DNA of 34,760 nucleotides, taken from positions 1-34,760 of the forward strand of contig JAIXTS010000102.1 of NCBI GenBank assembly GCA_027483805.1, in the 5' to 3' direction. Positions within the stretch are counted from its first letter, which is position 1; each line of letters begins with the position of its first letter. Positions 64 to 13,812 of the stretch are shown here, in pieces. The notes beneath the pieces are model-generated. The model was not told the origin of the DNA, did no database searches, and worked only from the letters and a program-made list of their open reading frames with translations. The position numbers and the translations under genes were made by a program. The stretch is from Azospirillum sp. (GTDB taxonomy: Bacteria > Pseudomonadota > Alphaproteobacteria > Azospirillales > Azospirillaceae).

Positions 64-1920
64 ATGCGCGACGGTGAAGTGAACGAGTGGGCCCCGCAGG
101 GCGCGGACGTGTTCGGCCAGATTCAGATGCGCAAGCATGCGGCCGTGACTGTGGATCATACCCGCAACGAATTGCTGACAACGTTCGGCAAGGCGACGCT
201 GGATGACCGCTACCTGATGCCGGGGGAGACCTACCAGGACCTGTTCGCCCGCGTCGCCAGCTATTATTCCGATGACCACGCGCATGCCCAGCGCCTCTAT
301 GACTATATCTCGCGCCTCTGGTTCATGCCGGCGACGCCCGTCCTTTCCAATGGCGGCACGGCGCGCGGCCTGCCCATTTCTTGCTTCCTGAACGAAGCCA
401 GTGACAGCCTGGAAGGCATTGTCGGCCTATGGAACGAGAATGTCTGGCTGGCCGCCAAGGGCGGCGGCATCGGCTCCTACTGGGGCAATTTGCGCTCCAT
501 CGGTGAGCAGGTGAAGGATAGCGGCAAGACCAGCGGCGTCATCCCCTTCATCCGCGTCATGGACAGCCTCACCCTGGCCATCTCCCAGGGCAGCTTGCGC
601 CGGGGTTCGGCCGCCTGCTACCTGCCGGTCAGCCACCCGGAGATCGAGGAATTCATCGAGATGCGCCGCCCCACGGGCGGTGATCCCAACCGCAAGGCGC
701 TGAACCTGCACCATGGTATCGCCATTCCCGACGCCTTCATGCGCGCGGTTGAGGGTGATGAGGAATGGGCGTTGACCAGCCCGAAGGATGGCAAGATCCT
801 GCGCCGCGTGAAGGCACGCGACCTGTGGATCCGCATCCTGACCGCCCGTATGGAAACGGGCGAGCCCTATATGCTGTTCATCGACCATGTGAACCGGGCC
901 ATCCCGGAACATCACAAGCTGGCCGGCCTGACGGTCAAGATGTCGAACCTGTGCAGCGAGATCACGCTGCCCACCGGCATGGACCCGTGGGGCAAGCAGC
1001 GTACCGCCGTGTGCTGCCTGTCCTCGTTGAACCTGGAAAACTTCCTGGAATGGCAGGACCATCCGACCTTCATCGAGGACGTGATGCGCTTCCTGGATAA
1101 TGTCATGACCGACTTTATCCAGAAGGCCCCCAGCGACATGGAGCGCGCCAAATATTCGGCCATGCGCGAACGGTCGGTGGGTCTGGGCGTCATGGGCTTC
1201 CACAGTTTCCTGCAAAGCCAGATGATCCCGATCGAAGGCGTGATGGCCAAGGTCTGGAACAAGCGCATGTTCGCCCTGATCAAGCGCAAGGCCGACGAAG
1301 CCTCGGTCAAGCTGGCGCATGAGCGCGGGCCTTGCCCCGACGCCGCCGAATATGGCGTGATGGAGCGCTTCTCCAACAAGATCGCCATCGCGCCGACGGC
1401 GTCGATCTCCATCATCACCGGCGGCGCGTCGCCGGGGATCGAACCGGTGGCTGCCAATGCTTATACGCACAAGACCCTGTCGGGCAGCCATTCGGTGCGC
1501 AACCCGTACCTGGAAAAGCTGCTGGCGGAGAAGGGCCGCAATGACGAGGACACCTGGTCGGAGATCACGCTGAACAGCGGGTCGGTCCAGCATCTGGACG
1601 TCCTGACCCAGGATGAGAAGGACGTGTTCAAGACGGCGTTCGAACTGGACCAGCGCTGGTTGATCGAACATGCCGCCGACCGCACGCCGTTTGTCTGCCA
1701 GAGTCAGTCGCTGAATGTCTTCCTGCCGGCTGACGTGCATAAGCGCGACCTGCACCAGATCCACATGATGGCCTGGAAGAAGGGCGTGAAGAGCCTGTAC
1801 TATCTGCGCTCCATGTCGGTGCAGCGTGCCGAGAGCAACGCCACCAAGGAGATCGGCCGCGCCAAGCCGGCACCGGCGGCAGAGACCAACAAGTACGAGG
1901 AATGCCTGGCCTGCCAGTAA
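64..1920 (+). CDS. nrdA: Ribonucleoside-diphosphate reductase, alpha subunit
   Basis: 618-aa ORF with RNR large-subunit motifs (MPATPVLSNGG, KGGGIGSYWG, NLCSEI, APTASISIITG) and C-terminal CLACQ. Confidence 0.93.
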   Translation: MRDGEVNEWAPQGADVFGQIQMRKHAAVTVDHTRNELLTTFGKATLDDRYLMPGETYQDLFARVASYYSDDHAHAQRLYDYISRLWFMPATPVLSNGGTARGLPISCFLNEASDSLEGIVGLWNENVWLAAKGGGIGSYWGNLRSIGEQVKDSGKTSGVIPFIRVMDSLTLAISQGSLRRGSAACYLPVSHPEIEEFIEMRRPTGGDPNRKALNLHHGIAIPDAFMRAVEGDEEWALTSPKDGKILRRVKARDLWIRILTARMETGEPYMLFIDHVNRAIPEHHKLAGLTVKMSNLCSEITLPTGMDPWGKQRTAVCCLSSLNLENFLEWQDHPTFIEDVMRFLDNVMTDFIQKAPSDMERAKYSAMRERSVGLGVMGFHSFLQSQMIPIEGVMAKVWNKRMFALIKRKADEASVKLAHERGPCPDAAEYGVMERFSNKIAIAPTASISIITGGASPGIEPVAANAYTHKTLSGSHSVRNPYLEKLLAEKGRNDEDTWSEITLNSGSVQHLDVLTQDEKDVFKTAFELDQRWLIEHAADRTPFVCQSQSLNVFLPADVHKRDLHQIHMMAWKKGVKSLYYLRSMSVQRAESNATKEIGRAKPAPAAETNKYEECLACQ

Positions 1921-2067
1921 TACCGACGGACAAAATTCTTGACCGTCGGTACGGCGGCGACCGCCGCCGCGCGCCACGTGGCGCGTCGCCAACCCCATGG
2001 ATAGGGGCGCCGGCGATTGAGGGCAGGAAAGATTGACCAACGGTCAAGATTTCATGCCGCCGGTATA
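1921..2067. repeat. Dispersed structured repeat, copy A
   Basis: About 146 bp, about 9 mismatches by eye to the reverse complement of 13667-13812; begins with hairpin TACCGACGGACAA-AATTC-TTGACCGTCGGTA. Confidence 0.85.
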
Positions 2068-2091
2068 AGGCAGATCAGTGACCGAGGAGAC

Positions 2092-8091: not shown

Positions 8092-9252
8092 TCAGGTGAC
8101 GGCCGGTTCGGCCATCGCGCCCAGGGGCAGGGTGCAGTCCCGCAGTTTCAGGCCCTTCAGCCTGTCCACCGGTATCACAACGCCGGTAAAATCCACCCAT
8201 TCGATGGCCGCGTCGCGCAACCGCACGGGCAAGGCCCCGCCGCCGCGCAATCGCAGATCCCCCATGTTCGCGGCCTCCACCACGGTGTTGCGCAGGGTAG
8301 CCCCTTCGAACCCCGCACCGCGCAAATCGCAGCCCGAGAGGTCGGCATAAGCCAGGCTGGCACCGCCGAAATCACTGGCGGCCAGCTTGGCATGGCTCAA
8401 CTGGGCACCCGACAGGTCGGCACCGCGGAAGGACATGGCCGACAGTTCACGTCCGCGCAGATCCACGCCCTTCATCTTGCGCCCTGTGAAATCGGCCCGC
8501 GCGCCGGCCTGTCCGCCGCTTTCCACCCATTCCTCGTGCTGGGTGACGATACGGTCGATCTCCGCCAGATTCTGCAGATGTTCGGTAAAGGCCGGCAGTC
8601 CCTGGAACAGACGGCGCGTCGTGTCATCCACCGTAAAGGTGGCATCCTTGATATCGGCATGCAGGAAATTGGCGCCCTGCATCTTGGCACCCAACAGCAC
8701 GACGCCCTGCAGGTCGCTTTCGCTGAAATCGGCGTTGGCCAGGTTGGCATTGCGCATGTTGACGCCGCGCAGCCGCACCTTGCGCACCACGGCATCTTCC
8801 AGCGACGCCTCTTCCAGATTGCAGAAGGACAGGTCGGTCACGAACTCCCGGCTGAGCACATCATCCCCCTTGCGGTGCAGGGTGATGTTGCCCATGCGCA
8901 TATCGCTGCCATCCAGCTTGGCCTGGGCAAGGTCGGATTTGTAGAAACGGGCACCGCGCAGGTTGGCGCGGGAGAAGTCGCAATGTTTCAGATTGGCGCC
9001 GATGAACAGGCTGTTCGCCAGATCCGTTTCCCGAAACTTGCAGCCTTCCATGTTTGTTTGTGAAAAGTTGCAGGCCAGCAGTGTTGCCTGCGACAGGTTG
9101 AACCCTTTTAGTTGCAGGCCCTCCATGCTGGCCAGCCGCAATTCAAGGCGCCGACCGCCCTTCCCCTTCAGGAAGAGCGAGTGCATGGCGAGATGTGTTG
9201 TGAGATCGGTGCGCGCAGAACCGGTATCGGTAGATGGAACCGCCATGAACAT
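8092..9252 (-). CDS. Pentapeptide-repeat protein (two repeat blocks)
   Basis: Many A(D/N)LXX repeats (e.g. NLKHCDFSRANLRGARF), split by a HEEWVESGGQAGARADF linker. Confidence 0.9.
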   Translation of the reverse strand: MFMAVPSTDTGSARTDLTTHLAMHSLFLKGKGGRRLELRLASMEGLQLKGFNLSQATLLACNFSQTNMEGCKFRETDLANSLFIGANLKHCDFSRANLRGARFYKSDLAQAKLDGSDMRMGNITLHRKGDDVLSREFVTDLSFCNLEEASLEDAVVRKVRLRGVNMRNANLANADFSESDLQGVVLLGAKMQGANFLHADIKDATFTVDDTTRRLFQGLPAFTEHLQNLAEIDRIVTQHEEWVESGGQAGARADFTGRKMKGVDLRGRELSAMSFRGADLSGAQLSHAKLAASDFGGASLAYADLSGCDLRGAGFEGATLRNTVVEAANMGDLRLRGGGALPVRLRDAAIEWVDFTGVVIPVDRLKGLKLRDCTLPLGAMAEPAVT

Positions 9253-9392
9253 TCAGCCGTATGTTATTTTATTGCGGTGCGGCTGAACAAACAATGCTCA
9301 TGCGCCCGCAAAGGGATATTGGCCTGTCAAATAGCAAAAGAAAATGATTAATAAGTTAATATTGCGCACCCTAACCGAAAGGTCATGGAGTG

Positions 9393-9515
9393 TGATTGTT
9401 GGTCTTTTTGTTTGCCCTCAATCGCCGGGCGCCACATCCGTGGGCTTGGCTTGGTGCCGCAGGGGCGGCGGGCCGCCCGTCGCCGGCCTGCAAGGGTCAT
9501 GGTCCATGACCCTTG
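9393..9515. repeat. Dispersed structured repeat, copy C (divergent, swapped hairpin)
   Basis: Shares GTTGGTC...TGCCCTCAATCGCCGG.GC.CC..ATCC.TGGGCTTGGCT with copy B; ends in perfect hairpin CAAGGGTCATG-GTC-CATGACCCTTG (9491-9515). Confidence 0.7.
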
Positions 9516-9586
9516 CTCACAGGGTGCGGTGAAACCATCTCGCTGCTGCGGTCGGATTAATTCCGGTAATCTCGCGTCAAGCTCTC

Positions 9587-9609
9587 GCAAGATACCAACA
9601 GTATCTTGC
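9587..9609. repeat. Perfect inverted repeat downstream of the second pentapeptide gene
   Basis: GCAAGATAC-CAACA-GTATCTTGC; no T-run, so termination uncertain. Confidence 0.5.
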
Positions 9610-9683
9610 CTCAACCTTTCCTAATCTTGCCGAATGCCTCCCTGCCTCGCGACGCGAAAGCCCTTTCCCGCAACCCTGCTAAA

Positions 9684-10814
9684 TCAAGGTTCTTCCGGCA
9701 TACGGCATTCACGCAGGACCGCACCGGAAAGCTGTTCGGGCGTGATCACACATTGCGTAAAGCTGGTCCATTCGATGGACGCACCCGTAAACCGGATCGC
9801 CATCTTGCCGCCACCGCGCAGTTCCAGATCGCCAAAATTCGCCCCATCGACGCTGGTGTGCAGCAGTCGGGCATTTTCCATGCCGGCACCGCGCAGGTCG
9901 GCATTGGACAATTCGGCATAGGCCAGGGTGGCCCCGTTAAAATCGGCCGCTGCCAGACGGGCATGGGCCAGCTTGGCCCCGGTCAGATCAGCGCCCCGGA
10001 AAGACACGGCTGAGAGTTCCCGCCCACGCAGATCGACACCGCGAAGCGCCATACCGGCGAAATCAGCCCGGGCCCCCGACCGGCCGCCGGAATTCACCCA
10101 TTCCTCATGTGCGGCAACGATGCGGTCGGTTTCCCGCAGATTGGCCAGATGTTCCTCGAAGGCCGGATTGCCGGCAAACAGGCGGCGGGTTTCATCATTT
10201 ACCGTGAAGACGGCGTTCTTGATATTGGCGCCGGTGAACTTTGCCCGCTCCATCTGGGCGCCCAACAGCACCACGCCCTGCATGTCCGCCCCCGACAGGT
10301 CGGCGCCCGACAGGTCGGCATTGCGCATATTGACGCCGCGCAGCCGCACATTGTGCAGCACGGCGTCCTGAAGGGTTGCTTCCTCCATGTTGCAGAAGGA
10401 AAGGTCGGTGGTGAATTCCCGCTGCTTGGCGACACCGCCGCTGTTCAGCGTAATCGACCCGACCCGCATGTCGGACCCGGTCATCTTCGCCTGCTGCAGG
10501 TCGGACTTGTAAAAGCGGGTGCCACGCAGATCGGCGCGGGTGAAATCGCAATGTTTCAGGTTGGCGCCGATGAACAGGCTGTTCGACAGGTTGGCAGCCT
10601 GAAAGCTGCACCCTTCCAGATCCGTATAGGACAGGTTGCAGGCCAGCAGCAGACATTGCGACAGGTCGAAATTGTTCAGCTTGATACCCGACAGGTTCTG
10701 CAGGCGCATCTCCAGCCGCTTGCCCGCATGCCCGCGGGCAAAAAGCGTGTGCTGGGCCAGCATGACCTGCATGTCATGCGACGGCAAGGTGTGGGCGCTT
10801 TGCGGTTTGTTCAT
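9684..10814 (-). CDS. Pentapeptide-repeat protein (paralog; ORF opens at 10940, likely start 10814)
   Basis: Colinear with 8092..9252, including FIGANLKHCDF.RA.LRG.RFYKSDL and HEEWVNSGGRSGARADF. Confidence 0.88.
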   Translation of the reverse strand: MNKPQSAHTLPSHDMQVMLAQHTLFARGHAGKRLEMRLQNLSGIKLNNFDLSQCLLLACNLSYTDLEGCSFQAANLSNSLFIGANLKHCDFTRADLRGTRFYKSDLQQAKMTGSDMRVGSITLNSGGVAKQREFTTDLSFCNMEEATLQDAVLHNVRLRGVNMRNADLSGADLSGADMQGVVLLGAQMERAKFTGANIKNAVFTVNDETRRLFAGNPAFEEHLANLRETDRIVAAHEEWVNSGGRSGARADFAGMALRGVDLRGRELSAVSFRGADLTGAKLAHARLAAADFNGATLAYAELSNADLRGAGMENARLLHTSVDGANFGDLELRGGGKMAIRFTGASIEWTSFTQCVITPEQLSGAVLRECRMPEEP

Positions 10815-10967
10815 CGGGGGGCTGCTTGATCCAACATCAGGTTCAACTATGCCATACACGCAGACCTGGGTAATCCACCAACATCTCCATGTGGTCCTGG
10901 CCAAAAGACATATCCGGCACCGCCAGATACCCCGCGGCACCTGTCAAGACTGTTGACCCATAATAGA

Positions 10968-13579: not shown

Positions 13580-13612
13580 ATACCACCGGTCAAAATTCTT
13601 GACCGGTGGTAT
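13580..13612. repeat. Solo hairpin related to the terminal hairpin of the dispersed repeat
   Basis: ATACCACCGGTCAA-AATTC-TTGACCGGTGGTAT: 14-bp perfect arms, same loop as copy A. Confidence 0.8.
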
Positions 13613-13666
13613 TCGCGCCGGCTGGCGCGGTGGCGGCGCATGCCGCCGAAGCTTGAAATGCCAATG

Positions 13667-13812
13667 ATACCAGCGGCATGAAATCTTGACCGTTGGTCAC
13701 TCTTTCCTGCCCTCAATCGCCGGCGCCCCTATCCATGGGCTTGGCTGCGCACCACGTGGCGCGCGGCGGCGGTCGCCGCCCTACCGACGGTCAAGAATGT
13801 TGACCGTCGGTA
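13667..13812. repeat. Dispersed structured repeat, copy B (inverted relative to A)
   Basis: Reverse complement of 1921-2067 with about 9 mismatches. Confidence 0.85.

What the first reader, a model, noticed from the sequence alone, without database searches (positions are those of the whole stretch)
9393..9515. Third repeat copy keeps the scaffold but carries a different, perfectly self-complementary hairpin
Copy C shares the TGCCCTCAATCGCCGG...ATCC.TGGGCTTGGCT half with A and B. Where they have TACCGACGGTCAA-loop-TTGACCGTCGGTA, it has CAAGGGTCATG-GTC-CATGACCCTTG, unrelated in sequence but perfectly paired. A conserved core with a replaced yet fully compensated hairpin suggests selection on structure or a variable recognition module, such as RAYT-type REP specificity, a structured RNA or a protein-binding cassette.
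Basis: partly seen in the sequence, partly recalled or inferred. Interest (0 to 1): 0.72.

Follow-up and report, generated by a model that had tools for sequence, protein, structure and literature searches.

The report
Hairpin-ended mobile repeat in alphaproteobacteria
The odd repeat copy is an old, slightly decayed member of a large family of tiny non-coding jumping DNA elements found across the alphaproteobacteria, in which the interior stays the same while the hairpins at the ends come in many versions, the reverse of what is usual for such elements.

Summary
Copy C (core 9415-9488) carries a perfect 12-bp hairpin (9490-9516) unlike that of A and B, on the same core. The core is not local: 44 exact copies in this genome, and a covariance model finds the family in 26 of 289 sampled alphaproteobacterial genomes. 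Among 161 copies the terminal hairpin falls into about 31 sequence classes (own arms 96% paired, arms of different classes 28%); C's class has five known members. The decisive finding: complete copies (about 145 bp) begin TACC, end GGTA and are flanked by an exact 3-bp TNA duplication (41 of 60; 17 of 17 in recently amplified lineages). It is therefore a miniature inverted-repeat transposable element whose terminal repeats are themselves hairpins. Copy A duplicates the TAA stop codon of its neighbour gene. Four relatives lack the core at C's site. RAYT is rejected: no Y1 transposase in this genome or in 17 of 18 carriers of its family. Three internal stems covary strongly with almost no G-U, so pairing looks kept at DNA rather than sense-RNA level. 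The transposase was not found; an IS5-type enzyme is inferred from TNA only. No Rfam match and no paper describing the family was found.

The parts
9372..9516 (+). Copy C, whole decayed element (about 145 bp); ends no longer intact, no duplication recognisable
   Evidence: aligned with class members L203, L172 and L057; CM hit; absent at the orthologous spacer of four relatives
9372..9408 (+). eroded left terminal hairpin of C (TAACCGAAAGGTCATGG...TTGGTCTTT)
   Evidence: alignment with TACCAAGAGCCATGGATCATGACTCTTGG of L203
9415..9488 (+). conserved core of C: CCCTCAATCGCCGGGCG, stem 1, CTTGGCT, stem 2, stem 3
   Evidence: CM R1, 64.2 bits, E 1.5e-11
9490..9516 (+). right terminal hairpin of C, 12 bp perfect, loop GTC
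   Evidence: class shared with L057, L172, L203, L380
1921..2065 (-). Copy A, complete 145-bp element TACC...GGTA
   Evidence: L023; CM core 1952-2023
1918..1920 (.). 3-bp target duplication TAA of copy A; also the stop codon of ORF 64-1920
2066..2068 (.). second copy of the TAA duplication of copy A
13668..13812 (+). Copy B, 145-bp element TACC...GGTA; TGA on the left only
   Evidence: L025; CM core 13710-13781
13581..13611 (+). solo terminal palindrome TACCACCGGTCA..TGACCGGTGGTA without core (possible end remnant or minimal derivative)
   Evidence: other core-less palindromes in the genome

Best explanation
Copies A, B and C are members of one family of short non-autonomous DNA transposons (MITEs) of alphaproteobacteria. 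A complete element is about 145 bp: TACC, a left hairpin, an invariant motif (CCCTCA-NN-CGCCGG), three short stems separated by fixed motifs (CTTGGCT), a right hairpin, GGTA. The terminal inverted repeats are themselves hairpins and differ by subfamily; the interior is kept. SHOWN: the ends, an exact 3-bp TNA target duplication, class-wide distribution, recent amplification in some genomes, absence of C at the orthologous site of relatives, lack of coding sequence. INFERRED: a DDE transposase acting in trans, of the IS5 kind by its TNA target, recognises the terminal repeat and inserts the element at TNA (which includes TAA and TGA stop codons). The hairpin classes would then reflect different transposases or transposase variants acting on one shared interior. 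Copy C is an old insertion of the class TACCAAGGG(N)CATGG whose ends have decayed.
For: TSD: 28 of 48 copies have identical 3-bp flanks, all TNA; with right flanks shuffled mean 8.0, maximum 17 in 5000 shuffles; 0 of 48 share 4 bp. With further loci 41 of 60, and 17 of 17 in the recently amplified lineages. Left and right terminal repeats of the same copy match better than those of different copies (0.56 against 0.38, 0 of 2000 permutations). 44 exact cores in this genome, reversed control 0; one 3.4-Mb genome has 256 end motifs (control 0) and at least 40 near-identical copies. Orthologous spacers at C are 10-16 bp in three relatives against 324 bp here. Class-wide hits. L203, a member of C's class with intact ends, has TGA/TGA.
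Against: No transposase gene with TACC...GGTA ends was found: not among PF01609 or PF13340 loci of carrier genomes, nor by end-sharing in the amplified genome. Many copies lack the left hairpin and TACC end (for example those directly after stop codons in Nitrospirillum), which a simple MITE does not explain. C itself shows no target duplication. Interior conservation across a class is unusual for MITEs.
Confidence: 0.85

Rival explanations
1. REP/BIME-like element moved by a RAYT (Y1, single-strand transposase), the hairpin giving RAYT specificity.
For: Intergenic palindromes, hairpin classes, solo hairpins, some tandem arrays.
Against: No PF01797 in the own genome although five control genomes ring; 17 of 18 genomes of the two carrier genera lack it, genomes with strong Y1 hits mostly lack the element. 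An exact 3-bp target duplication is not expected of Y1 transposition (own knowledge).
Confidence: 0.03
2. A structured non-coding RNA (or 3'-UTR/leader element) dispersed by duplication; stems conserved by RNA function, mobility incidental.
For: Three stems with strong covariation across a class; invariant motifs; copies often right after stop codons or before start codons. The invariant GCCGG and TTGGC could pair with two fixed G-U.
Against: In about 5,700 stem positions G-T mispairs number 41 and A-C mispairs 81, so there is no sense-RNA wobble excess (copies are related, so only indicative). No consistent strand relative to genes. No Rfam family. No promoter- or terminator-like site at C.
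Confidence: 0.12
3. The perfect hairpins, internal stems included, are kept perfect by template-switch correction of quasi-palindromes during replication, not by selection; hairpin variety is then a mutational by-product. This could act on top of transposition.
For: Near absence of any mispair, symmetrical lack of wobble, stems swap whole sequences without intermediates.
Against: Does not explain the invariant flanking motifs and similar spacing across families, the matching of left and right ends of one copy, or the target duplications. Old copies such as C do decay in stems 1 and 3.
Confidence: 0.25

Closest known systems
Bacterial MITEs with internal secondary structure (ERIC/IRU, Correia/NEMIS, RUP, QMITE of Coxiella)
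   Same: 100-200 bp, no coding sequence, terminal inverted repeats, high copy number in intergenic DNA, stem-loop rich.
   Different: Those have mostly TA termini/duplications (PMC5896051 says so for most bacterial MITEs) and one terminal repeat per family; here TNA, hairpin-shaped variable terminal repeats and an interior conserved across a class.
IS5 family (IS1031 group) and the eukaryotic PIF/Harbinger-Tourist relatives
   Same: 3-bp target duplication; TNA for IS1031 from own knowledge, TWA for PIF/Harbinger and TNA for NuwaII from PMC4482050.
   Different: No transposase with these ends found; PMC4482050 gives ANT for bacterial IS5; the assignment is inference.
REP/BIME with RAYT
   Same: Intergenic palindromes, hairpin classes.
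   Different: No Y1 transposase; target duplication present; much longer composite.
IS200/IS605 ends and integron attC sites
   Same: Possible work-alike only: stems with free sequence beside invariant motifs, as in single-strand DNA recognition.
   Different: Those lack such target duplications (own knowledge); no tyrosine transposase or integrase link was sought beyond PF01797.

Membership tests
MITE (non-autonomous DNA transposon) | terminal inverted repeats | tested here: met
   TACC...GGTA; left and right ends of a copy match above permutation
MITE (non-autonomous DNA transposon) | target-site duplication of fixed length | tested here: met
   exactly 3 bp, TNA, 41 of 60 copies; 0 of 48 at 4 bp
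MITE (non-autonomous DNA transposon) | short, multi-copy, no transposase inside | tested here: met
   about 145 bp; 44 exact cores in this genome, at least 40 near-identical copies in another
MITE (non-autonomous DNA transposon) | insertion shown by empty orthologous site | tested here: met
   C-site spacer 10-16 bp in L275, L277, L278 and core-free in L276; exact junction not recoverable because spacers have diverged
MITE (non-autonomous DNA transposon) | autonomous relative with the same ends | tested here: inconclusive
   none among PF01609 or PF13340 loci; other transposase families not searched
IS5/IS1031-mobilised element | TNA target duplication | tested here: met
   but other DDE groups may share it
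IS5/IS1031-mobilised element | ends shared with an IS5-family insertion sequence | tested here: not met
   limited to the loci fetched
REP/RAYT | Y1 (PF01797) transposase in the genome | tested here: not met
REP/RAYT | GTAG or CGTC tetranucleotide tag beside the hairpin | not tested
   not scanned systematically
Known structured RNA (Rfam) | match to a curated covariance model | tested here: not met
Structured RNA, unknown | wobble-tolerant covariation on the transcribed strand | tested here: not met
   G-T 41, A-C 81
Structured RNA, unknown | expression as a discrete transcript | not testable with these tools
   no RNA-seq

The most novel reading that the evidence does not exclude
The conserved three-stem interior is the real replicating unit: a DNA structure recognised in single-stranded or cruciform form, acting like a parasite that swaps terminal hairpins and so borrows different transposases, which has kept one interior mobile across the alphaproteobacteria while the ends turned over.
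Probability: 0.25. Interest if true: 0.8.

Novelty: new variant of a known kind. Interest (0 to 1): 0.58.

Why it matters
It defines an apparently undescribed, class-wide family of miniature transposons (matches in about 18 or more family-level groups of alphaproteobacteria in a small sample) that makes up many intergenic repeats now annotated as nothing. Ordinary MITEs keep their ends and vary inside; this one keeps its inside and varies its ends, with each end a hairpin. That gives a natural data set for asking how transposase specificity changes and whether DNA secondary structure is part of recognition. The preference for TNA also explains how copies can land on a stop codon and restore it, as copy A does.

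Tried and rejected
RAYT/REP. Known RNA families. Literature: no held paper contains the core string, and searches for alphaproteobacterial MITEs or dispersed repeats did not turn up a description of this family; absence from an open-access library is weak evidence. Autonomous partner: PF01609 in the own genome gave two loci, one of which (L334) is an insertion sequence lying beside a terminal hairpin of this family; PF13340 in 12 carriers; end-sharing in the most amplified genome gave only further miniature copies of 103-201 bp. Plasmid and phage collections: only Niveispirillum cyanobacteriorum plasmids, no match in plasmids or phages for the amplified form, two viral contigs (not examined). 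Alignments A2 and A3 contained a few sequences I had typed inexactly and are not used as evidence; A4 is built from locus references only. L253 is a chance match inside a gene and was left out. Single-linkage clustering of hairpins chained nearly everything into one group and was replaced by average linkage. A strand bias as for a 3'-UTR element: none clear (heuristic gene calls).

Full report
Observation. Copy C is as described. The shared half TGCCCTCAATCGCCGG...ATCC.TGGGCTTGGCT stands at about 9413-9450, and the hairpin GCAAGGGTCATG-GTC-CATGACCCTTGC at 9490-9516. Copies A (minus strand, 1921-2065) and B (plus, 13668-13812) carry TACCGACGGTCAA...TTGACCGTCGGTA at the same place.

Scale. The 14-base core occurs 44 times exactly in this genome, against 0 for the reversed pattern. 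Lining the copies up shows one architecture: optional left hairpin, CCCTCAATCGCCGG(G)CG, stem 1 with an ATCC-type loop, CTTGGCT, stem 2, stem 3, right hairpin. In the family 18 of 83 genomes carry the core-plus-CTTGGC pattern, all but one of them in two genera, which named records point to as Niveispirillum and Nitrospirillum. A pattern scan of public genomes adds Magnetospirillum, Telmatospirillum, Roseomonas and sphingomonad records. A covariance model finds it in 26 of 289 alphaproteobacterial genomes, and 9 of the 10 positive genomes of a phylum-wide sample lie in the class (the number of candidates scored per genome is capped, so copy counts are lower bounds). The one outside hit is in a fragmented, 88% complete assembly and may be contamination.

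Structure. On 49 distinct sequences of stem 1, 94% of cells pair and 83 cells carry a change on both sides, against at most 21 for slid controls. On 20 complete cores all three stems covary: 13 of 19 pairs with two-sided changes, 72 cells against at most 12. G-U is nearly missing: 1 of 380 cells. Counting stem 1 and both terminal hairpins over all copies, G-T mispairs (41) do not exceed A-C mispairs (81). A sense RNA should tolerate G-U; the lack points to DNA-level pairing or to template-switch correction. One caveat: the invariant GCCGG and TTGGC can pair through two fixed G-U, and since they never vary this cannot be tested by covariation.

Hairpin classes. In 161 copies with a right hairpin, average-linkage clustering gives about 31 classes; own arms are 96% complementary, arms of different classes 28%. 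C's class contains L057, L172, L203 and L380, from Niveispirillum genomes and the record named Azospirillum sp. RU38E. So C's hairpin is not a private invention but one of many versions in circulation.

Transposition. Intact copies begin TACC and end GGTA. Flanking trinucleotides are identical in 28 of 48 copies and then always TNA; shuffling gives 8 on average and never more than 17 in 5000; no copy shares four bases. With loci from the recently amplified genomes the figure is 41 of 60, and 17 of 17 in those lineages. In one 3.4-Mb genome the end motif occurs 256 times with no control match, in size classes from 103 to 201 bp. The left and right ends of one copy resemble each other more than ends of different copies do, as terminal inverted repeats should. 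Copy A sits exactly between two TAA, the first of which is the stop codon of ORF 64-1920. At C, three relatives have a spacer of 10-16 bp between the aligned flanks where this genome has 324 bp, and a fourth has a spacer of about 107 bp without the core; flanks there have diverged too far to read C's exact junctions.

What C is. Aligned to class members, C keeps core and right hairpin, has lost the outer TACC and GGTA, carries a one-base deletion in stem 1 and mispairs in stem 3, and has an eroded left hairpin. It is an old copy. Its perfect right hairpin stands out because the rest has decayed.

Mechanism. Shown: a mobile element with hairpin-shaped terminal repeats, a 3-bp TNA duplication and no coding capacity. 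Inferred: movement in trans by a DDE transposase, by target preference like IS5/IS1031 (own knowledge; PMC4482050 gives TWA and TNA for eukaryotic relatives of IS5, but ANT for bacterial IS5). No partner gene was found in the families searched. Many copies lack the left end; whether these are one-ended products, old deletions or an independent form of the core is open.

Alternatives. RAYT is contradicted by the absence of Y1 genes in 17 of 18 genomes of the two carrier genera and by the target duplication. A structured RNA is possible but lacks support from wobble pairs, strand bias, Rfam or local signals. Template-switch correction may well help keep stems perfect and is compatible with transposition.

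Novelty. By kind it is a MITE; as a family it appears undescribed in the sources searched, and its conservation pattern (interior fixed, ends variable) is unusual. I therefore call it a new variant of a known kind.

Noticed in passing
window 13581-13611 and 13613-13659: A core-less terminal palindrome TACCACCGGTCA..TGACCGGTGGTA, next to two GC-rich stems that give a weak minus-strand model hit (E 0.058). Similar sequence occurs in relatives. Possibly a second, core-less element type using the same ends.
   Followed up: partly
window 9517-9683: The rest of the C spacer is also absent from three relatives; it holds another hairpin, GCAAGATAC-CAACA-GTATCTTGC.
   Followed up: no
window 8092-9252 and 9684-10940: Copy C separates two tandem pentapeptide-repeat-like genes that are 70-80% alike over long stretches; the pair without the insertion is conserved in four relatives.
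   Followed up: partly
G124 (loci L318-L323, L360-L379): A 3.4-Mb alphaproteobacterial genome with about 128 elements of this family (256 end motifs) in several size classes (103, 145-148, 172-174, 197-201 bp): a good system for studying recent amplification.
   Followed up: partly
L334 (own genome, C204): An insertion sequence of about 1.5 kb with GGGCCTGTTGAAAAAGCC ends lies directly beside CTGACCGTCGGTATCA, that is, inside or next to a terminal hairpin of this family.
   Followed up: no
L018, L034, L240, L273, L300: Tandem copies, some sharing or fusing a terminal hairpin (right hairpin of one copy joined to the left hairpin of the next).
   Followed up: no
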